DNA of 64,000 nucleotides from an uncultured Clostridia bacterium (GTDB lineage: Bacteria; Bacillota; Clostridia; Oscillospirales; Oscillospiraceae). The position numbers were made by a program, and so were the translations under genes. The stretch's first letter is position 1; every line of letters starts with the position of its first letter. The stretch lies in the NCBI GenBank assembly GCA_947649615.1, contig CANSSG010000010.1:1-64000 (forward strand), written 5' to 3'. The notes beneath the pieces were generated by a model that did no database searches, was not told the DNA's origin, and saw only the letters and a list, made by a program, of their open reading frames with translations. Positions 38,911 to 60,842 of the stretch are shown here, in pieces.

Positions 38911-38988
38911 AAACGAATGCCTTTCTCCCAGGCGGCCTTCGGGCCGCTCCAAGTGGTTTCTTCCGCCCTGCTTCAATCCAGGGCGCCG

Positions 38989-39492
38989 TTATTCCAGCAA
39001 AAAGCCTTTTGCCGCCAGCTCTTCCCTGACGCGGGCAAAGGCCTGCTCATCCGGGCAGTCCAGCGTGTGCAGATGGACCCCCTCCGTCAGCAGCGAAAGC
39101 GGCTGCGCAGCGTCAGCCTTCAGGATAAACTGCCGCACGTCATACCTGCTGGACAGCCCCAGTGCGCCCGTAAGCTGGCCATAAACCGGATGCTCCACGA
39201 TTACATCCAGGACTGTGCATCCATTATCGACCATAATTTGCAGTTCTTCTTCCATGCCGCCGCTCAGGTGGCGGCAAGCCACCTGCCGCTGCAAGCCTTT
39301 CCGCTTCTCCTGTATCAGGTACCCCCTGGCGGTAGCGTGAATGTCGGCTCCGCCGGCCCGCAGCAGGGCCACATCCCCCACCACAAGCTGCCGGCTTACC
39401 CCAAACCTGCCGGCCAGGGCAGCGGCGCTAACGGGTCCCTGCGCCCTGGAAAGCGCGTCCAAAATAGCGTCCCGGCGTTCCTGCGCAGTCAT
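38989..39492 (-). CDS. niaR: NiaR-type niacin-responsive repressor (HTH_11 + 3H)
   Basis: A 167-residue repressor of NAD biosynthesis and niacin uptake genes. The N-terminal winged helix (RRDAILDALSRAQGPVSAAA, FGVSRQLVVGDVALL) is followed by a 3H domain named for its three His, here in CRHLSGGMEEEL, VEHPVYGQL and GVHLHTL, which bind metal and nicotinic acid. The end is FARVREELAAKGFLLE. A promoter (TTGACG-17-TATACT) lies at 39537-39565. No NAD-pathway gene is nearby, so its targets are elsewhere, possibly including itself. Confidence 0.9.
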   Translation of the reverse strand: MTAQERRDAILDALSRAQGPVSAAALAGRFGVSRQLVVGDVALLRAGGADIHATARGYLIQEKRKGLQRQVACRHLSGGMEEELQIMVDNGCTVLDVIVEHPVYGQLTGALGLSSRYDVRQFILKADAAQPLSLLTEGVHLHTLDCPDEQAFARVREELAAKGFLLE

Positions 39493-39536
39493 GGCCTTCC
39501 CTCCTCCGGCGACAGCAATACTGGCAATATAATGAT

Positions 39537-39565
39537 AGTATACCTGTCTATGCCCCCGCCGTCAA
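39537..39565 (-). promoter_or_regulatory. Promoter of the niaR-type gene
   Basis: On the minus strand TTGACG (39565-39560), 17-bp spacer, TATACT (39542-39537). ACAGGTATACTATC across the -10 could be an autoregulatory site. Confidence 0.75.
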
Positions 39566-39568
39566 GAG

Positions 39569-42163
39569 TTATACCGCTGCAAAGCTCAACTTCTCCCCAT
39601 CGCTTCCGATCACGACCCGCTGCCCGTCGGACAGCGTCCCGCGAATCAGCATAGCGGCCAATTCCGTCTCCACATGCTTCTGCAAATACCGTTTCACAGG
39701 CCGCGCCCCATAGGACGGCGAATAGCTGGCCCTGGCAATAAACGCCCTGGCTTCTTCCGTCAGTTCTGCGCGGATGTCCCTGTCCGCCAGCCGCCGCGCC
39801 AGCGCGGCCATAGCGATGTCGATGATCCCGCCGATCTGGCTTTCGGTCAGGGGGGAGAACACCACGATATCATCCACCCGGTTAATAAATTCCGGCCGGA
39901 AATACTGGTTCAGTTCATTCCGAACGCGTTCCCTTACCTCCGGGCTGACAGACCCATCCTGATGGATATTCTCGGTCAGGTACGCGCTGCCGATGTTGCT
40001 GGTCATGATGACGATGGTGTTTTTGAAATCGACCGTCCTGCCCTGGTTGTCGGTCAGCCGCCCGTCGTCCAGCAGTTGCAGCAGGATATTGAACACATCC
40101 GGGTGGGCTTTTTCAATTTCGTCGAACAGCACCACGCTGTAAGGCTTCCGCCGCACGGCTTCGGTCAACTGCCCGCCCTCGTCGTAGCCCACGTATCCCG
40201 GGGGCGCGCCGACCAGGCGGCTGACGGCGTGTTTCTCCATATACTCGGACATATCAATGCGGATTATGTTCCGCTCGTCGTCAAACAGCGATTGCGCCAG
40301 GGTTTTGGCCAATTCCGTCTTGCCCACGCCGGTAGGACCCAGGAAGATAAAGGACCCAATGGGCCTGTTTTCCTCCTTCAGCCCCGCGCGTCCCCGCAAG
40401 ATTGCTTCACTGACGGCGGAGACCGCCTCGTCCTGCCCAATGACCCTGCGGTGGAGGATTTCCGGCAGACGCAGCAGCTTTTCCTTCTCGCTTTCCACCA
40501 GCTTGCTGACGGGGATGCCGGTCCACTTGCTGACCACCCCGGCAATTTCCTCCTCGGTGACTTCCTCCTTGAGCAGGTGGTCGTCCTTCCCGGCGTCCAC
40601 CCTTGCCCGTTCCTCCTCCAACTGCTTTTCCAATCCAGGCAGGGTTTCATATTTCAGCCGCGCCATTTTCTCCAAATCATAGCGCCGCTCCGCTTCCTCC
40701 ATCTGCCGCCGTGTGTCCTCGATTTCCTGTTTCAGCCGCTTGACCCCTGCGATAGACTGTTTTTCCGTCTCCCACTGGGCGCGCATGGCGTCGTTTTTCG
40801 CTTTCAGTTCCGCCAGTTCCGCATCAATATGGTGGAGCCGGTTTTTCGAGCCGTTGTCCTCCTCCTTGCCCAACGCCTGCTTTTCAATTTCCAGCTGCAT
40901 CATTTTCCTGCTGATTTCATCCAGCTCGGCAGGCAGGCTGTCAATTTCCATCCGGATTTTGCTTGCGGCCTCGTCCATCAGGTCGATGGCCTTATCCGGC
41001 AAAAACCGGTCGGTAATATACCGGTCCGACAGGGCGGCGCAGGCAATCAGCGCCCCATCGGTAATCCGCACCCCATGATGGATTTCAAACCTTTCCTTCA
41101 GCCCCCGCAGGATCGAGACGGTATCTTCCACCGTAGGCTGGCCGATCAGCACCTTCTGGAACCGCCGTTCGAGGGCGGCGTCTTTTTCGATATACTTCCG
41201 GTACTCGTCCAAGGTAGTCGCCCCGATGCAGTGCAGCTCCCCTCTCGCCAGCTTAGGCTTAAGGAGGTTGCCGGCGTCCATGCTGCCCTCGGTGCGGCCC
41301 GCGCCCACGATATTGTGGAGTTCGTCGATGAACAGCAAAATCCGCCCATCGCTTTTCTCCACCTCATTGAGCACGGCTTTCAGCCGCTCCTCGAACTCCC
41401 CCCGGTACTTCGCCCCGGCGATCAGGGACCCCATATCCAGCGCGAAAATCGTTTTATCCTTCAATCCCTCCGGCACATCGCCGTTAAGGATGCGCTGGGC
41501 CAGCCCCTCCACTACGGCGGTCTTGCCCACGCCCGGCTCCCCGATAAGCACCGGATTATTTTTGGTTTTCCGGCTCAAAATCTGAATTGTGTGCCTGATT
41601 TCCGCGTCCCGGCCAATCACGGGGTCCAGCTTCCCCTGCCGGGCCATTTCCACCAAGTCCCTGCCATATTTTTCCAGGGCCTCATAGCCCTCCTCCGGGT
41701 TCTGGCTGGTGACTCTCTGGCTTCCCCGGACCTTGGTCAAGGCCTGCAAAAGCTTCTCCTTGTCAATGCCGTACCGTTGGAACAGCTTCGCGCTGGGGGT
41801 GCCTGACTCCTCCGCCAGCGCCAGGTACAGATGCTCCACCGATACATATTCGTCTTTAAACTGCTGCGCAATCTGCTCTGCCGCGGTGAAGAGCTGGCTC
41901 AGCCTGCGGCTGGCGTAAAGCTGCCCCGCCCCATCGCCTGACACCTTAGGCAGGCGGTCGATTTCCCGCTGCACCTCCCCGGCCAGCGTCTCCACGTCCA
42001 GGCCCATATAGGCCAGGAGCCTTGGCACCAGCCCATCCCGCTGGCGCAGCAGCGCCAGGTGGAGATGTTCTCCACCGATTTCCTGCTGCCCGTTCTCCAC
42101 GGCGGCCGACTGGCAGTCCGCCACCGCCTGCTGGGCGTTCTGGGTATAGCGATCAAAGTTCAT
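39569..42163 (-). CDS. clpB: Protein disaggregase ClpB
   Basis: An 864-residue AAA+ chaperone that rescues aggregated proteins with DnaK. Two N-terminal Clp repeats (about 1-140), the first ATPase ([16 protein letters not shown]), the long middle coiled coil about 400-520 that marks ClpB rather than ClpC or ClpA, and the second ATPase ([17 protein letters not shown]) are all present. The pore loops KYRGEF and GYVGYDEGG are intact. Start ATG 42163 follows AAAGGAGG. A perfect CIRCE element lies 100 bp upstream, so HrcA controls it. Confidence 0.96.
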
Positions 42164-47377: not shown

Positions 47378-47431
47378 ACTCTGTCCCTTTCTTTCTTTGC
47401 CGTCTCCGGCGGCAGGGGCGTTTTTTCTCTA

Positions 47432-47592
47432 AGGCGTGTTTGAAAAATGTCAAAACGCCCAAAGGGCGGATCTTTTTCCGCTGTACAGCGTTAAAAAATC
47501 TTGAAATACACAAAGTATTCCTACGATTTTTTGCCTTGTCCATCGAAAAAATCTCTCGCTTTTGGTCATTCCGCCATTTATCAAACAAGCCC
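47432..47592 (-). mobile_element. 161-bp MITE-like element, copy 1
   Basis: Read on the minus strand it runs from GGGCTTGTTTGATAAATGGC to CATTTTTCAAACACGCCT. The ends are inverted repeats of about 22 bp with few mismatches. The left flank is TA, the right flank TC. It differs from copy 2 at only about four positions. It has no transposase and is non-coding. Confidence 0.85.
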
Positions 47593-47636
47593 TCCGGCCC
47601 GGGGGCGGACGCTGGGGATTGGCGGGCCGCATTTCT

Positions 47637-52407: not shown

Positions 52408-52441
52408 AGGAATCTCCTTCCAGACAGTACTTTTCACATTA

Positions 52442-52602
52442 GGGCTTGTTTGATAAATGGCGGAATGACCAAAAGCGAGAGATTTTTTCGATGGACAAGG
52501 CAAAAAATCGCAGGAATACTTTGTGTATTTCAAGATTTTTTAACGCTGTACAGCGGAAAAAGATCCGCTCTTTGGGTGTTTTGACATTTTTCAAACACGC
52601 CC
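52442..52602 (+). mobile_element. 161-bp MITE-like element, copy 2
   Basis: Same length and nearly the same sequence as copy 1, in the opposite orientation, with TA on both flanks. Inside are an AT-rich stem (GATTTTTT / AAAAAATC) and CGCTGTACAGCG. It separates the ParB-like gene from hsp20. Confidence 0.9.
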
Positions 52603-52608
52603 TAATAT
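52581..52608 (+). promoter_or_regulatory. MITE-derived promoter facing hsp20
   Basis: TTGACA (52581-52586) lies inside the MITE; after 16 bp the target TA begins TAATAT (52603-52608). The transcript would start about 45 bp before the CIRCE operator. A second native promoter cannot be excluded. Confidence 0.55.
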
Positions 52609-52659
52609 ACGATTATAGTATAGCATACGCCTCTGGAAATTACAACCGGTCTGCAAATT

Positions 52660-52780: not shown

Positions 52781-53215
52781 ATGTTTGAAATGATTCCCTT
52801 CACCCGTACGCGCGGCGTAGACCTGTACCGTCCCTTCCGTGACCTGGAGGAGCTGGAACGCAGCATGTTCACCAACAGCGGCGCAGCGGCCTTCCGCACG
52901 GACATCCGCGACACAGGGGACGCCTATGTGCTGGAGTCCGACCTGCCCGGGATGAAGAAGGAGGACATCCACATTGACATCGACGGCGACCGTCTCTCCA
53001 TCAGCGCCCAGCGGAGCGCGTCCAAGGAGGAGAAGGACGAAAACGACGGCTATATCCGCTGTGAGCGCACCTTCGGCTCTTTCTCCCGGAGTTTTGACAT
53101 CTCCGGCATCCACGCGGAGGGCATTGCGGCGGCATATGAAGACGGCGTATTGAAGCTGACCCTGCCCAAGCAGGTTCAGACAGCCCCCGCCGTACGGCGG
53201 GTGGAGATTCAGTAA
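52781..53215 (+). CDS. Small heat-shock protein (Hsp20)
   Basis: A 144-residue alpha-crystallin-type holdase that keeps unfolded proteins soluble. The crystallin domain runs from about 40 to 135 (FRTDIRDTGDAYVLESDLPG, KEDIHIDIDGDRLSISAQR) with the GVLKLTLPK strand near the end and an IxI-like VEI tail. ATG 52781 follows ATCGGAGG. The CIRCE site 95 bp upstream puts it in the HrcA regulon with clpB. Confidence 0.94.
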   Translation: MFEMIPFTRTRGVDLYRPFRDLEELERSMFTNSGAAAFRTDIRDTGDAYVLESDLPGMKKEDIHIDIDGDRLSISAQRSASKEEKDENDGYIRCERTFGSFSRSFDISGIHAEGIAAAYEDGVLKLTLPKQVQTAPAVRRVEIQ

Positions 53216-53313: not shown

Positions 53314-54552
53314 CTACGCGAAAATACTTTCAAAGCCCCGCAAAAACTTCCGCCAATCCATCACATCTTCCAGTTTAACCGCCCTGATTTTCAGCGTCCG
53401 CACCTTCCCGCTCCAATCGGCGAAGGTATAGTCGCCAACAACCCCCGCTTTTTCCACGCAGGGATAAAGCAGAAACACCCGCTCCGCGCCCCGGATGCCG
53501 GAAGAATAGGCATTCATCTGGTATACGTCCGATTCCTTGGCGAACCCTTTCGGGATTTTCCACTTTGCGTCCACGATATCCAGCCCGCCGCTCCCGGTTT
53601 TGATGGCGATGTCAGGCCGCAGGCCGGCAAACCGTTTCCCATCCGCGTCCCGCGCCAGCAGGTAATTCCCCCGCATCTGGTAGGAGGCCCGGCTGCCGAA
53701 CACCATTTTTGCAACCCGGTAAATAAACAATTCATACAAGCTGTTCATATTGAACAGCATCATATTAACCGCCATATTCCCCGCGCTCAGGGTACTGTAG
53801 ATATTTCTGAGGAACAGCAGCCCATACCGGTAAGCGCCTTCCGCCCGATAGTTCGCGGAGTGGAAGGCCGCCGGCCTGGCCAAGGCCTGTTCCCGGCTGA
53901 TGGACGAAACCCCGGCAAACGCGGGCAGCAGGAATTTAATCCGCCGCTTATTCTGCGCGTCTCTGCTGAACAAGTCCATCTGCTTCAGGCAGGCCCTAAA
54001 GAACCGGTTCACATCATTATCCGCCGTAAACTTGGAATACTGGCACCAAAACTTAGCCGGATCCAGCAAATTCCTGGAAAACTGTTTGCCGAATAGGATT
54101 TTCCCCTTGACCCGGTTAATATTTTGGCTGACCTTCTGATAGGCATGCAGCAAGCCTTCCTTGACGTAGGCGTCCAAAACGTCCAGAAAGGATGCAATGA
54201 ACATTTCCATCAAAGAATCCTTCCGCATCCCGGCCATGCCAGGTATATCCCGAACAGAGGGGGGCTGATGGGAAATGGCAATCATCCGCACCAGCACGTT
54301 CCGCAGGCCGTCCTCATCCATGTATCCGCTGAGCTTAGGCAGGATTTCGACCGTCAGGTCCTTCAGGGAAACGGTCCCCACCCAATGCTGGGCGGTCAGC
54401 TTTTTGTACCCCCATTTAAACACCGGTTCGTCCTCAAGAACGATCCTCTCAAGCGCAAGGGCGTCCTCCTTGGAAATGACCCGGCAGCCCGCGTTCCGCT
54501 TATCCTTAATCAGGAGTTGGTCATATTCCTTCAAAACGATCGTGTCCATCAT
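53314..54552 (-). CDS. mcrC: McrC-family nuclease subunit
   Basis: A 412-residue restriction subunit. The N-terminal part (about 1-180) resembles the McrC domain that contacts the McrB ring. The C-terminal PD-(D/E)xK nuclease is intact: LRPDIAIKTG, then LDIVDAKWK with Asp and Lys at catalytic distance (about residues 323-339). It cuts DNA when the McrB motor is activated. Its ATG at 54552 overlaps the mcrB stop (ATGA), so both are made in fixed ratio. Confidence 0.92.
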   Translation of the reverse strand: MMDTIVLKEYDQLLIKDKRNAGCRVISKEDALALERIVLEDEPVFKWGYKKLTAQHWVGTVSLKDLTVEILPKLSGYMDEDGLRNVLVRMIAISHQPPSVRDIPGMAGMRKDSLMEMFIASFLDVLDAYVKEGLLHAYQKVSQNINRVKGKILFGKQFSRNLLDPAKFWCQYSKFTADNDVNRFFRACLKQMDLFSRDAQNKRRIKFLLPAFAGVSSISREQALARPAAFHSANYRAEGAYRYGLLFLRNIYSTLSAGNMAVNMMLFNMNSLYELFIYRVAKMVFGSRASYQMRGNYLLARDADGKRFAGLRPDIAIKTGSGGLDIVDAKWKIPKGFAKESDVYQMNAYSSGIRGAERVFLLYPCVEKAGVVGDYTFADWSGKVRTLKIRAVKLEDVMDWRKFLRGFESIFA

Positions 54553-55811
54553 AAGTAGATTTGCTCCAAGGAAGCGTTGGTGATGTTTTCAGAGACAAAA
54601 TAGTGTTTTTTGTCATCAATCATATAGTCCCCGGTATAAGGGAAGTAGTCTTCCGCGGCCAATTCTGCATGGCGGTAAACCGCGTCCGGCCGCAGGTCCC
54701 CCGCCGGGTCAAGGTCATTGAAAACGAGTTGGATTTTCTGTACGTCGTCAAAGAAATACTCTTCCAGCAGCGGCACCACGGCGCTGCGCACCGTCCTGGC
54801 GATGTCCGCGGCGCTTTTGCAGCCGGTAAACAGCGCGTGTCCCAGCAAATGCTGTGCATCCAGCAAAAGCTCAATCCTGGCGTTCAGCGTATTGAACAGC
54901 CGGATCAAGTCGATCCCGTCTACATTGTGGGCGTCCACGCCCTGCAAGCCCAGTTCTTTTTCAATCACGCCCGCGTCCGGCAGCATGGGCCTGAACTGGA
55001 AGCGCCGCCTCAATGCGATATCAATCTGGTCAATAGACCGGTCGGCCGTATTCATCGTGCCGTATACGTTCACATTTGCAGGCACGGAAAACTCCGTTTT
55101 TGAATACGGGAGGACGGCGGACAGCGCCCCCGCTTCCCCGGCCCGCTTATCCGGCTCGAGCAGGCTGATTAATTCGCCGAAGATTTCCGAGACGTTCCCC
55201 CGGTTGATTTCATCAATAAAAATGGCGTACTCTTTTTCCGGGTGTTTTTCCGCCTCGCCGCACAGCCGCTTGAACACGCCGTCCTTAGGCGAGTAGTCGA
55301 TGCTTTTGGCCGCAGCCTCATATTCCGGCCGGATTCCCTCCATAAAGTCCTCGTAGGAATAGGACTGGTGAAAGGTAACGAAGTCGTAGCGTTTTGTAAC
55401 CGTGGCGGCGCGCAGGAACTTGGCGAAGAAATCAGGCCGCGCCTGCTGCACCCGCACCAGGTCCACATACCAAGTATCCGGACCCGTAGTAAAGAACACC
55501 CTCGGCAGCTTCCTGACGGCGCCGGCGACGGGCGGCGCCGCGATGCTGTGCAGGTCCAGTTCTGCGGCGGCGTTCACCGCAAGGCCCAGCGACAAGCCGT
55601 CGATTTTCCTTTGAACATCCGCCGACGGCATTTTCCCATGGTTTTGCAGCAGGACCAGCGCAATCAGGATCCAGCCCTTCGACTCTGCGACGAAGGCCCT
55701 TTTCAGCACCGCGTCATCCATTTCGTAATCAATGTAATCGTTCATAAGGGAACGCAGCAAATACGTTTTCCCGGTTCCGGGGGGACCGTAATAAATGATA
55801 TTCCGCGCCAT
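54549..55811 (-). CDS. mcrB: McrB-family GTPase motor lacking the DNA-binding N-terminus
   Basis: A 420-residue AAA+ motor. Walker A GPPGTGKT is already at residues 9-16, Walker B is IFIDEINRGN and the GTP-selective signature is YGTMNTADRSID. Classic McrB carries 150 or more residues of DNA-reading domain before the Walker motif; here there is none, so sequence reading must come from another subunit. ATG 55811 lies 6 bp after the stop of the LAGLIDADG-type gene, with GAGAGG as SD. The methyltransferase gene lies upstream in the same operon. Confidence 0.92.
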   Translation of the reverse strand: MARNIIYYGPPGTGKTYLLRSLMNDYIDYEMDDAVLKRAFVAESKGWILIALVLLQNHGKMPSADVQRKIDGLSLGLAVNAAAELDLHSIAAPPVAGAVRKLPRVFFTTGPDTWYVDLVRVQQARPDFFAKFLRAATVTKRYDFVTFHQSYSYEDFMEGIRPEYEAAAKSIDYSPKDGVFKRLCGEAEKHPEKEYAIFIDEINRGNVSEIFGELISLLEPDKRAGEAGALSAVLPYSKTEFSVPANVNVYGTMNTADRSIDQIDIALRRRFQFRPMLPDAGVIEKELGLQGVDAHNVDGIDLIRLFNTLNARIELLLDAQHLLGHALFTGCKSAADIARTVRSAVVPLLEEYFFDDVQKIQLVFNDLDPAGDLRPDAVYRHAELAAEDYFPYTGDYMIDDKKHYFVSENITNASLEQIYL

Positions 55812-55817
55812 ATCCGC

Positions 55818-56570
55818 CTATCCTCTCAAATATTTCAGTCCCGGCAAAAACGCGCTGGCGTCCGTCACCACGGCCCTGCCGGACACGGCCTGATAGACCT
55901 CCGCCAGCTTCCGTACCTTTGCCGGTGAGATATACCCGGTATTTTCCATATACCGCCGCACGTCCCTGATCCGCAGCTGGGGCCGCCTGGGCGCGCCGCC
56001 CGCCGCGCGGTCCCTGGCGGTGTTGTAGTTAACGGACAGCCCATAGCGGACGATAATTTCCGACAGGAAGTCCCCGATGGCCGCGCTGGGGCAGTCCAAG
56101 GACAGGTAGCGGATCGTCTGCCTTGCCGCGCTGGCGTCCGGCGTCCCCCTGCCGTCCATCACGCCGATGATAAACGCTTTCTGCACCTCTCCGGACGACC
56201 GGAGCAGCGCGTCTTTCAGCGCCGGTATCCCATCCGCCAGGTTCGCCAGCCCTGTAGACGCAAAAAAGGTGCTGAACCCCGGCAGCCTGTTCTTCCCGGA
56301 ATCCAAGGGCGTATTGCGGATGTTTTCCCGCATGACGGTGTACCCGCCAACCTGGGCGGCGATTTGCCTGACGCAGTCGAAATGCGCCGCCGTCTCGGCC
56401 GGCGTCGAGTAGGTCGGGTTGTAACGGACGGGGGACGCCCAGTAGAGCTTCCCGCCGCTGCTCACCTTTTCATCGGCGGCATAGATGCCGCCCAGGAAGT
56501 AGGCCGCTTCTTTGGTCAAATACTGCGTACCCGTGCTGATTCCCGCGTTATAAACCTGATAATCCGGCAT
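55818..56570 (-). CDS. LAGLIDADG-fold protein in the McrBC operon
   Basis: A 250-residue protein with two LAGLIDADG-like helices. Motif 1 is YFLGGIYAADEK (24-35) and keeps the acid (Asp33). Motif 2 is AFIIGVMDGRG (132-142), where Arg141 replaces the catalytic Asp. This fold is a homing-endonuclease DNA-binder, and loss of one acid should weaken or stop cutting. It precedes mcrB, which lacks a DNA-reading domain, so it probably serves as specificity subunit. The start is ATG 56570 after GGAAGG; a longer frame to 56684 is poor. No intron or intein surrounds it. Confidence 0.7.
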   Translation of the reverse strand: MPDYQVYNAGISTGTQYLTKEAAYFLGGIYAADEKVSSGGKLYWASPVRYNPTYSTPAETAAHFDCVRQIAAQVGGYTVMRENIRNTPLDSGKNRLPGFSTFFASTGLANLADGIPALKDALLRSSGEVQKAFIIGVMDGRGTPDASAARQTIRYLSLDCPSAAIGDFLSEIIVRYGLSVNYNTARDRAAGGAPRRPQLRIRDVRRYMENTGYISPAKVRKLAEVYQAVSGRAVVTDASAFLPGLKYLRG

Positions 56571-56632
56571 ATCTGGCCTTCCTTTCCGCGCCCGCGCCGG
56601 AGGGCGGCCCTCCCCCGCGGATTGTTCAAAAC

Positions 56633-57382
56633 CTACTGCAAAGATTTTTCCACGCTGTCCAGTCTTTTTTGGGCGTTCAGGCAATACTCTGCATTAATTT
56701 CCGCGCCGATAAACCGCCTGTTATGCTGCAACGCGGCCACCCCAGCGCTTCCGCTGCCGGAGAAGGGGTCGAAGACCACGTCGTTTTCGTTAGAGAGCAC
56801 CTCCACGAAATGGGACAGAAGCTGGACCGGCTTTTGGGTCGGATGCTTTCCGAACGCCTTCTCGCCGGAGGGCGTAACGGAGGTCTCCAAGAAATCATGC
56901 AGCGCCCTGCCCTGGTTGCGGAACGTCCCGGTATGGGACTTGTAAACAAAGTAGAGCCAAGCTTCGGTCGAATTGATGAAGTGCAGGTTCATATTCCTCG
57001 GCATAGGATTCTTTTTATGCCATATCCCGGTAGTTTTGTAATAGAACCCGTGCTTTTCAGCCAAAGAAATGATGGTTTCGACTTTAATGATTGACATAAA
57101 CATGATCACGGAGCCTTTTGGCTTCACCACCCGCGCCAGCCCTTCAAACATCTTATCCATATCACCGGCCCATTCCTCGAACGGCAAGTTGTCCCACCCG
57201 GCGGCTCCGAAAAAATTTTTCCGCATCGCCTTAAGGTTAGTGGCCCGGTTTTTCATAAACAGCCCCAGGTTATAGGGGGGGTCCGTAAGGACTAAATCCA
57301 CGGAATTTTCCTCCATATGCCGCATTGCCTCCAGGCAGTCCATATGGTAAAGGCAGTAATTTATACCCATTGCAACATCCAT
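56633..57382 (-). CDS. Beta-class DNA methyltransferase (N6-A or N4-C)
   Basis: A 249-residue methyltransferase with motif order IV-X-I of the beta class. Motif IV is LVLTDPPYNLG (about 31-40), motif X is HPTQKPVQLLSHFVEVL, and motif I is FDPFSGSGSAGVAAL (about 204-218) followed by FIGAEIN. DPPY suggests N6-adenine. It has a short target region between IV and X, so the site should be small. ATG 57382 has no clear SD, and ATG 57370 is an alternative. It is the first gene of the operon with the LAGLIDADG-fold protein, McrB and McrC. Confidence 0.92.
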   Translation of the reverse strand: MDVAMGINYCLYHMDCLEAMRHMEENSVDLVLTDPPYNLGLFMKNRATNLKAMRKNFFGAAGWDNLPFEEWAGDMDKMFEGLARVVKPKGSVIMFMSIIKVETIISLAEKHGFYYKTTGIWHKKNPMPRNMNLHFINSTEAWLYFVYKSHTGTFRNQGRALHDFLETSVTPSGEKAFGKHPTQKPVQLLSHFVEVLSNENDVVFDPFSGSGSAGVAALQHNRRFIGAEINAEYCLNAQKRLDSVEKSLQ

Positions 57383-57423
57383 AATAAATAAATCCAGTCT
57401 TAAGGCCGCCAGCCATTTCCCCC

Positions 57424-57452
57424 ATTATACAGCAAAACGCGCGTTTTATCAA
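57424..57452 (-). promoter_or_regulatory. Promoter of the restriction-modification operon with an operator-like palindrome
   Basis: On the minus strand TTGATA (57452-57447), 17-bp spacer, TATAAT (57429-57424). The spacer contains the perfect palindrome AAAACGCGCGTTTT (57434-57447). Such a site in a promoter usually means repression. Confidence 0.85.
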
Positions 57453-60292: not shown

Positions 60293-60509
60293 GAAAAAAA
60301 CTCCTTATCATTCATTTTCCCGCTGGCGTTTTCGGGCCAGCACAGGAAAATTAACGCGCTGCGGGACAAAGCATGCGGACCAGCTCCTTTTCGCTGCATT
60401 TTCCGCCGTCCCGCCCGCGGGGAGGGGGCGGGACGGCGGAAAATTTTTTAGATTTTTTTCACAGAGGTTGCACAAAACACGGCAACTTTCCGCCAAATGC
60501 GGCCTACTA
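60293..60509. other. Structured intergenic region with a 19-bp hairpin
   Basis: A perfect 19-bp stem (60398-60416 with 60426-60444) is followed on the plus strand by TTTTTT, the layout of a terminator, yet no plus-strand gene precedes it. A second, weaker stem (CGCTGGC / GCCAGC) lies near 60320-60345. A small RNA from the plus strand is possible; I see no clear promoter. Confidence 0.45.
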
Positions 60510-60670
60510 GGGCTTGTTTGATAAATGGCGGAATGACCAAAGGCGAGAGATTTTTTCGATGGACAAGGCAAAAAATCGCAGGAATACTTTGTGTATTTCA
60601 AGATTTTTTAACGCAGTCCACCGGAAAAATATCCGCCGTTTGGGCGTTTTGACATTTTTCAAACACGCCC
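60510..60670 (+). mobile_element. 161-bp MITE-like element, copy 3
   Basis: Same length and ends as copies 1 and 2, about ten substitutions from copy 2, flanked by TA on both sides. Its outward TTGACA is followed by TAGTGT, but the next gene is on the opposite strand. Confidence 0.9.
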
Positions 60671-60842
60671 TAGTGTAGCGAGCGTCACCTACCGGAACTT
60701 CGCGCGTTCAAACAAAAACGCTCACAGGGGTTGATCTCCCTGGAAAATCCCCGGCGCCGGTTGCAAACGGCCGTACCTTGAAAACGGAATAAAGAAAGGG
60801 CAAGCGCACAAACGGGCAAACAGGCAAAAACGCCCGAAAGCA
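60671..60842. other. Intergenic stretch after MITE copy 3
   Basis: No gene with a ribosome-binding site is visible. The stretch holds ACCTTGAAAACGGAATAAAG, a phrase like those seen in rRNA spacers, but no rRNA or tRNA sequence accompanies it. Confidence 0.4.

What the first reader, a model, noticed from the sequence alone, without database searches (positions are those of the whole stretch)
53314..57452. Methyltransferase-LAGLIDADG-McrB-McrC operon: a possible new restriction system
Four tightly packed genes. McrB starts at its Walker motif (residue 9), so it has no DNA-reading domain; the gene before it encodes a LAGLIDADG-fold protein with one active acid replaced by Arg141. The simplest model is that the LAGLIDADG protein reads the DNA site, the beta-class enzyme methylates it, and McrBC cuts unmethylated DNA. 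McrBC-derived restriction guarded by methylases is known (LlaJI, BsuMI), but there with C5 methylases and other reading domains. A homing-endonuclease fold used as specificity subunit would be new to me.
Basis: partly seen in the sequence, partly recalled or inferred. Interest (0 to 1): 0.88.

Follow-up and report, generated by a model that had tools for sequence, protein, structure and literature searches.

The report
McrBC restriction operon with LAGLIDADG subunit
This bacterial gene cluster looks like a DNA-defence system in which a retired 'homing endonuclease' protein, no longer able to cut, probably finds the target site for a separate DNA-cutting motor, a pairing I found described nowhere, though the function is still untested.

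Summary
On the minus strand lie a beta-class (DPPY) methyltransferase, a LAGLIDADG-fold protein, an McrB GTPase whose Walker motif starts at residue 9, and McrC with an intact PD-DxK nuclease motif. Searches with the LAGLIDADG protein alone found eight other loci; in all eight its gene is directly 5' of a domain-less mcrB and mcrC. The linkage survives three gene orders, and protein distances agree (r 0.93-0.98). Other McrB loci examined, nearly all with N-terminal domains, have no LAGLIDADG gene. AlphaFold plus Foldseek confirm the fold (best hit I-DmoI). Both catalytic positions are probably lost (Ala/Ser32, Arg141), not one, so it is most likely a DNA-binding subunit.

Two corrections. First, the complete system has five genes: all eight relatives also encode a C5-cytosine methyltransferase, which the window has lost. 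Second, this is not a LlaJI-family system: its McrC is canonical (PF10117), not RE_LlaJI (PF09563). Separate-subunit cassettes with domain-less McrB are already known (LlaI, BsuMI), so the new element is the LAGLIDADG reader on canonical McrBC. That it reads the restriction site is inferred, not shown. A winged-helix-like insert in McrB is the main rival reader.

The parts
57424..57452 (-). sigma-70-like promoter (TTGATA-17-TATAAT, 11 of 12 matches) whose spacer holds the 14-bp perfect palindrome AAAACGCGCGTTTT (57434-57447), a possible operator
   Evidence: consensus match only (3 sites found, 2.4 expected in shuffles)
56633..57382 (-). M1: beta-class amino-DNA methyltransferase, DPPY motif, probably N6-adenine (249 aa)
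   Evidence: PF01555 2e-37; closest solved structure 5hek/5hfj 2e-34; 55-79% identical to M1 in eight relatives
56571..56632 (.). 62-bp junction where relatives L002, L003 and L046 carry the C5-cytosine methyltransferase gene; no remnant here
   Evidence: no homologue of P0005 elsewhere in the genome
55818..56570 (-). LAGLIDADG-fold protein (250 aa, two repeats), proposed non-catalytic specificity subunit
   Evidence: eight homologues always next to mcrB
56469..56504 (-). LAGLIDADG motif 1 (AYFLGGIYAADE, residues 23-34); position of I-DmoI D21 is Ala32 (Ala/Ser in homologues)
   Evidence: the motif-1 helix ends at residue 32 as the motif-2 helix ends at 141
56145..56177 (-). LAGLIDADG motif 2 (AFIIGVMDGRG, residues 132-142); position of I-DmoI E117 is Arg141, invariant
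54549..55811 (-). McrB AAA+ GTPase without N-terminal domain (Walker A at residue 9, DEINRGN Walker B, MNTADRS signature)
55416..55715 (-). insert of about 110 aa after Walker A (residues 33-132), predicted helix-helix-strand-helix-helix-strand-strand, winged-helix-like
   Evidence: absent from E. coli McrB; also spanned in McrBs that have N-terminal domains
53314..54552 (-). McrC nuclease subunit (412 aa), PD...DxK motif intact
   Evidence: PF10117 1e-53; overlaps mcrB by 4 nt

Best explanation
A restriction-modification system built on canonical McrBC. The LAGLIDADG protein, a former homing endonuclease that has lost its catalytic acids, binds a specific DNA site and recruits or loads the McrB GTPase ring, standing in for the N-terminal reading domain that other McrBs carry. 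McrC then cuts after GTP-driven translocation. In the ancestral five-gene form, an N6-adenine and a C5-cytosine methyltransferase together protect the host's own sites, probably one per strand of an asymmetric site. The window carries a four-gene derivative that relies on the adenine methyltransferase alone. Shown: gene content, linkage, fold class, loss of catalytic residues, intact GTPase and nuclease motifs, absence of the C5 gene at this locus. Inferred: site recognition by LAGLIDADG, physical contact with McrB, cutting of unmethylated DNA, and one-strand-each protection.
For: LAGLIDADG-only searches recovered eight further loci; every one has LAGLIDADG immediately 5' of domain-less mcrB then mcrC, plus a beta-class and a C5 methyltransferase. 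Gene orders differ (M1-M2-L-B-C; M1-M2 convergent with L-B-C; L-B-C-M1-M2), yet L-B-C stays intact and LAGLIDADG-mcrB spacing is -8 to +14 nt in eight of nine. Protein distances of the four genes agree, r 0.93-0.98. In the McrB survey, no McrB outside this group has a LAGLIDADG neighbour, and nearly all of those have N-terminal domains. Fold. Catalytic positions Ala/Ser32 and Arg141. Window genes differ from relatives mainly at third codon positions, so they have been under constraint. In LlaJI the McrB-like subunit alone determines specificity (PMC1459862), and an H. pylori relative binds DNA through an N-terminal B3 domain (cited in PMC7680126).
Against: No direct evidence of DNA binding, LAGLIDADG-McrB contact or restriction. 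LAGLIDADG enzymes usually read long sites (12 bp or more), whereas methyltransferases of this size usually read 4-6 bp (general knowledge), so a shared short site needs explaining. McrB has its own winged-helix-like insert. Two genomes have domain-less McrB without any LAGLIDADG gene. The LAGLIDADG model used only five sequences, and TM-scores are moderate (0.39-0.47 by query for the leading hits). The missing C5 methyltransferase makes it unclear whether the window copy can protect its own genome.
Confidence: 0.62

Rival explanations
1. The winged-helix-like insert inside McrB, not LAGLIDADG, reads the restriction site; LAGLIDADG has an accessory role such as loading, checking methylation state or bridging two McrB rings.
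For: Insert predicted at residues 33-132. McrB GTPase domains often contain inserts 'likely encoding specificity domains' (PMC11090510).
Against: The same region is spanned in McrBs that also have N-terminal domains (E. faecium 1146 aa, E. coli plasmid 691 aa), so the insert does not replace a reading domain there. LAGLIDADG occupies exactly the place where an N-terminal domain would be.
Confidence: 0.13
2. LAGLIDADG is a transcriptional controller of the operon, as WhiA is a LAGLIDADG-derived regulator, and has no part in cutting.
For: WhiA is among the fold matches. Restriction systems often carry controllers, and the window promoter has an operator-like palindrome.
Against: Relatives L002, L003, L046 and L047 already carry a small HTH gene (HTH_17 by Pfam in the three tested), and L006 an HTH_26 gene, just upstream of the operon or its methyltransferase genes. 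The promoter palindrome is not conserved. Obligatory adjacency to mcrB rather than to the methyltransferases fits a restriction subunit better.
Confidence: 0.1
3. The system is modification-dependent (Type IV): McrBC with LAGLIDADG attacks methylated foreign DNA, and the methyltransferases serve another purpose.
For: The McrB and McrC are canonical McrBC by family, whose studied members cut modified DNA.
Against: Both methyltransferases travel with the set in all eight relatives through three gene orders, as expected for protection. Methyltransferase-associated McrBC is reported as a common, possibly ancestral association (PMC11090510).
Confidence: 0.1
4. An active homing endonuclease gene inserted next to mcrB, or a chance neighbour.
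For: LAGLIDADG fold.
Against: Nine of nine loci linked, congruent distances, invariant Arg141, no conserved acid pair.
Confidence: 0.03

Closest known systems
LlaJI (Lactococcus; R1 with unique N-terminal half, R2, two C5 methyltransferases)
   Same: McrB-like GTPase plus PD-DxK nuclease subunit, paired methyltransferases for an asymmetric site, cutting of unmethylated DNA (PMC1459862; a LlaJI-type locus was read as L067).
   Different: R2 belongs to RE_LlaJI PF09563, while this McrC is PF10117 with no detectable similarity to R2. Specificity would be a separate LAGLIDADG protein, and one methyltransferase is beta-class DPPY.
BsuMI and LlaI three-ORF restriction cassettes
   Same: Domain-less McrB-like subunit (343 and 337 aa) in a cassette of three restriction ORFs, with methyltransferases (PMC1459862).
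   Different: The nature of their extra ORF could not be read here. This McrB is closer to canonical McrB (PDB profile hits are T. gammatolerans and E. coli McrB) and is longer because of the insert. Here one methyltransferase is beta-class.
Canonical Type IV McrBC (E. coli DUF3578/ADAM, T. gammatolerans YTH-fold N-terminal domain)
   Same: GTPase and nuclease families, NxxD signature (MNTADRS), modular exchange of DNA-reading domains (PMC7680126, PMC11090510).
   Different: No N-terminal domain on McrB; separate LAGLIDADG protein; dedicated methyltransferases.
SpyI-type system of Streptococcus phage phi1207.3
   Same: McrB-like and second restriction subunit with one methyltransferase, a precedent for the window's single methyltransferase.
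   Different: C5 methyltransferase; GTPase subunit of 555 aa; no LAGLIDADG annotated.
LAGLIDADG homing endonucleases (I-DmoI) and WhiA
   Same: Two-repeat LAGLIDADG fold.
   Different: Catalytic acids replaced; fixed partner of McrBC rather than a mobile intron/intein gene or a sporulation regulator.

Membership tests
LAGLIDADG homing endonuclease | two-repeat LAGLIDADG fold | tested here: met
   AlphaFold secondary structure in two alpha-beta-beta-alpha-beta-beta-alpha repeats; first 48 Foldseek hits are LAGLIDADG enzymes, inteins or WhiA
LAGLIDADG homing endonuclease | acidic catalytic residue at the end of each motif helix | tested here: not met
   motif 2 Arg in all full-length homologues; motif 1 Ala/Ser in the register set by AYxLG and helix end, or Asp/Asn if shifted by one
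LAGLIDADG homing endonuclease | mobile gene in introns, inteins or scattered sites | tested here: not met
   always directly 5' of mcrB in nine loci
McrBC | McrB AAA+ GTPase with Walker A/B and MNxxD signature | tested here: met
McrBC | McrC of PF10117 with PD-DxK nuclease | tested here: met
McrBC | DNA-reading domain at the N terminus of McrB | tested here: not met
   Walker A at residue 9; contrast with other McrBs
LlaJI family | nuclease subunit of RE_LlaJI PF09563 | tested here: not met
   positive control L067 R2 hits PF09563 at 4e-31; P0003 hits only PF10117 above cut-off; no blastp similarity
LlaJI family | two C5 methyltransferases | tested here: not met
   relatives have one beta-class and one C5; the window has only the beta-class
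BsuMI/LlaI three-ORF cassette | domain-less McrB with a separate extra restriction ORF | tested here: met
   architecture of BsuMI/LlaI from PMC1459862
BsuMI/LlaI three-ORF cassette | homology of the extra ORF | not testable with these tools
   sequences of those extra ORFs were not obtained
Type II restriction-modification | cognate methyltransferase(s) in the locus | tested here: met
   both in all eight relatives; one in the window
Type II restriction-modification | cuts unmethylated DNA at or near a specific site | not testable with these tools
   needs an assay

The most novel reading that the evidence does not exclude
A domesticated, cleavage-dead homing endonuclease serves as the exchangeable specificity subunit of a GTP-driven McrBC restriction enzyme. 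In the window the system has also dropped its C5 methyltransferase and survives with methylation of one strand only, by a two-site, Type III-like orientation rule of a translocating nuclease.
Probability: 0.15. Interest if true: 0.82.

Novelty: new variant of a known kind. Interest (0 to 1): 0.62.

Why it matters
McrBC enzymes are known to swap DNA-reading domains fused to McrB. If confirmed, it would be a natural case of a homing endonuclease recruited as a targeting subunit for a DNA motor and nuclease, and it would offer a route to re-aimable restriction, since LAGLIDADG specificity can be engineered. The window copy without the C5 methyltransferase is also a natural test of how such systems avoid cutting their own genome.

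Tried and rejected
Sequence-only detection of the fold in P0001 failed: no Pfam, PADLOC or PDB hit, only a chance-level NCBIfam model, and the profile's best PDB hits were centrins, a chance EF-hand similarity. No homologues in the phage or plasmid collections. Considered and dropped: active homing endonuclease (acids lost, fixed linkage); LlaJI membership (wrong McrC family); every domain-less McrB having LAGLIDADG (two chromosomal counter-examples); the relatives' C5 methyltransferase lying elsewhere in the genome (P0005 search empty; the one PF00145 gene, on contig 24, is a divergent type); the 170-bp direct repeats as island ends (they are dispersed genome-wide); the promoter palindrome as a conserved control site (absent in relatives). 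Global profile alignment to I-DmoI failed and only the motif-2 segment aligned locally, so the motif-1 register rests on the shared AYxLG string and the helix ends.
Full report
Observation. Searches confirm four intact minus-strand genes between 53314 and 57382, with a promoter-like site reaching 57452. The methyltransferase (249 aa) has the beta-class motif order, DPPYN first and DPFSGSGS last, and matches PF01555. Its closest solved structures are 5hek and 5hfj. The next gene (250 aa) contains AYFLGGIYAADE and AFIIGVMDGRG. McrB (420 aa) starts its Walker motif at residue 9, and McrC (412 aa) matches PF10117 over the whole model and keeps PD...DxK.

Fold of the second protein. Pfam, PADLOC and PDB sequence searches did not recognise P0001, although homologue L047 hits LAGLIDADG_3 at 0.0015, below that family's cut-off. 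AlphaFold with five homologues gave pLDDT 79 and pTM 0.84, with two alpha-beta-beta-alpha-beta-beta-alpha repeats. Foldseek against the PDB returned I-DmoI (E=1.3e-5, probability 1.0), inteins and WhiA for the first 48 hits. TM-scores are moderate, and the five models ranged widely in confidence, so the fold class is firm but details are not.

Catalytic residues. The I-DmoI sequence was written from memory and then verified against the PDB. Its motif SAYLLGLIIGD aligns without gaps to AAYFLGGIYAA, putting Ala32 (Ser in L013) at the D21 position; IAFIKGLYVAEG aligns to KAFIIGVMDGRG, putting Arg141 at the E117 position. The model supports this: the motif helices end at 32 and 141, and the next strands begin at 34 and 143. 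If motif 1 is shifted by one residue the position is Asp33, which is Asn in three of eight full-length homologues. Either way no conserved acid pair remains, which argues against DNA cleavage.

Linkage. Searches that used only the LAGLIDADG protein or its profile gave eight further loci: L002 and L003, G246=L006, G439=L013, L046 and L047, G1226=L056 and G1390=L057. All eight carry LAGLIDADG, domain-less mcrB, mcrC, a beta-class methyltransferase and a C5 methyltransferase. L057 shows only the C-terminal part of LAGLIDADG because its contig ends there, and its spacing to mcrB is about 350 nt. Three arrangements occur, yet LAGLIDADG-mcrB-mcrC always stay together, with -8 to +14 nt between the first two in eight of nine loci. 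Pairwise protein distances of the four genes over eight loci correlate at 0.93-0.98. In a table of McrB relatives from genomes and viral contigs, LAGLIDADG occurs only with McrBs whose Walker motif is at residue 9-11, while nearly all others have N-terminal domains and no LAGLIDADG. The exceptions are two chromosomal 335-aa McrBs without LAGLIDADG or nearby methyltransferases. The genome loci in that table have only about 1.5 kb of flank, so methyltransferases further away would be missed there. The system is rare: apart from the window's own genome, at most two other genomes matched in any search of about 300-400 genomes at family, order, phylum or class level.

The missing methyltransferase. 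In L002, L003 and L046 the C5 gene sits between M1 and LAGLIDADG; in the window only 62 bp separate them, with no remnant. A search of the whole genome with the relatives' C5 protein found nothing; one divergent PF00145 gene lies on another contig. The genome is about 96% complete in 70 contigs, so an elsewhere-encoded copy is unlikely but not excluded. Third-codon-position divergence dominates in all four window genes, so they have been under selection. The full system is therefore five genes, and the window is a reduced form. How one methyltransferase would protect its own sites is open: a palindromic site, hemimethylation-insensitive cutting, or a Type III-like two-site rule are candidates (inference).

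McrB. The GTPase belongs with canonical McrB: profile hits are T. gammatolerans (7e-69) and E. coli McrB (1e-54), and Foldseek agrees. Relative to E. coli McrB there is an insert of about 110 residues after Walker A, predicted helix-helix-strand-helix-helix-strand-strand, like a winged helix. McrBs with N-terminal domains also match across this region (E. faecium, an E. coli plasmid), so the insert is not a replacement for the missing domain, but it is the main rival as DNA reader.

Comparison with known systems. In LlaJI, R1 (GTPase with a unique N-terminal half) alone sets specificity, and R2 holds the catalytic centre (PMC1459862). The N-terminal domain of its H. pylori relative is a B3 fold (PMC7680126, PMC12707154). 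R2 of the LlaJI-type locus read here is PF09563 (L067), whereas this McrC is PF10117 with no blastp similarity to R2, so this is not a LlaJI family member. BsuMI and LlaI have domain-less McrB subunits and three-ORF restriction cassettes (PMC1459862), which is the closest architectural precedent; I could not read those extra ORFs. A census of McrBC reports methyltransferase-associated branches and inserted specificity domains and defers them to a later paper (PMC11090510). Searches of the open-access library found no paper connecting LAGLIDADG with McrBC systems; subscription journals are mostly not held.

Regulation. The window operon has a near-consensus promoter with a 14-bp palindrome in its spacer, not conserved in relatives. 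Relatives L002, L003, L046 and L047 carry a small HTH gene just upstream (HTH_17 in the three tested), and L006 an HTH_26 gene, which makes a controller role for LAGLIDADG less likely.

Verdict. Functional steps remain untested.

Noticed in passing
window 47430-47593 (-), 52440-52609 (+), 60508-60672 (+): A 165-170 nt repeat, 93-100% identical, with about ten full-length and more than twenty partial copies across the genome: a dispersed, MITE-like element of unknown kind.
   Followed up: partly
L044 5416-7652 (-) and L045 7186-9417 (+): In two genomes a 335-aa domain-less McrB is paired with an McrC-like protein in which no PD-DxK motif is evident by eye, next to a ychF-like GTPase gene, without methyltransferases or LAGLIDADG: a conserved McrBC-like pair perhaps without nuclease activity.
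   Followed up: no
L006 1247-14710: The five-gene system in G246 lies beside a serine-recombinase gene and a probable relaxase gene (named by eye), suggesting carriage on an integrative mobilizable element.
   Followed up: no
L002 3819-4106, L003 3922-4116, L046 2883-3086, L047 395-655: A small helix-turn-helix (excisionase/MerR-like) protein is encoded immediately upstream of the operon in four relatives but not in the window.
   Followed up: partly
window 52781-53215 (+): A gene for an Hsp20-type small heat shock protein (named by eye) converges on the mcrC end of the operon.
   Followed up: no
L012 (G000 contig 24, about 38980-40060): A divergent C5 methyltransferase gene, probably of a phage type, at a contig end is the only PF00145 match in the window's genome.
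   Followed up: partly
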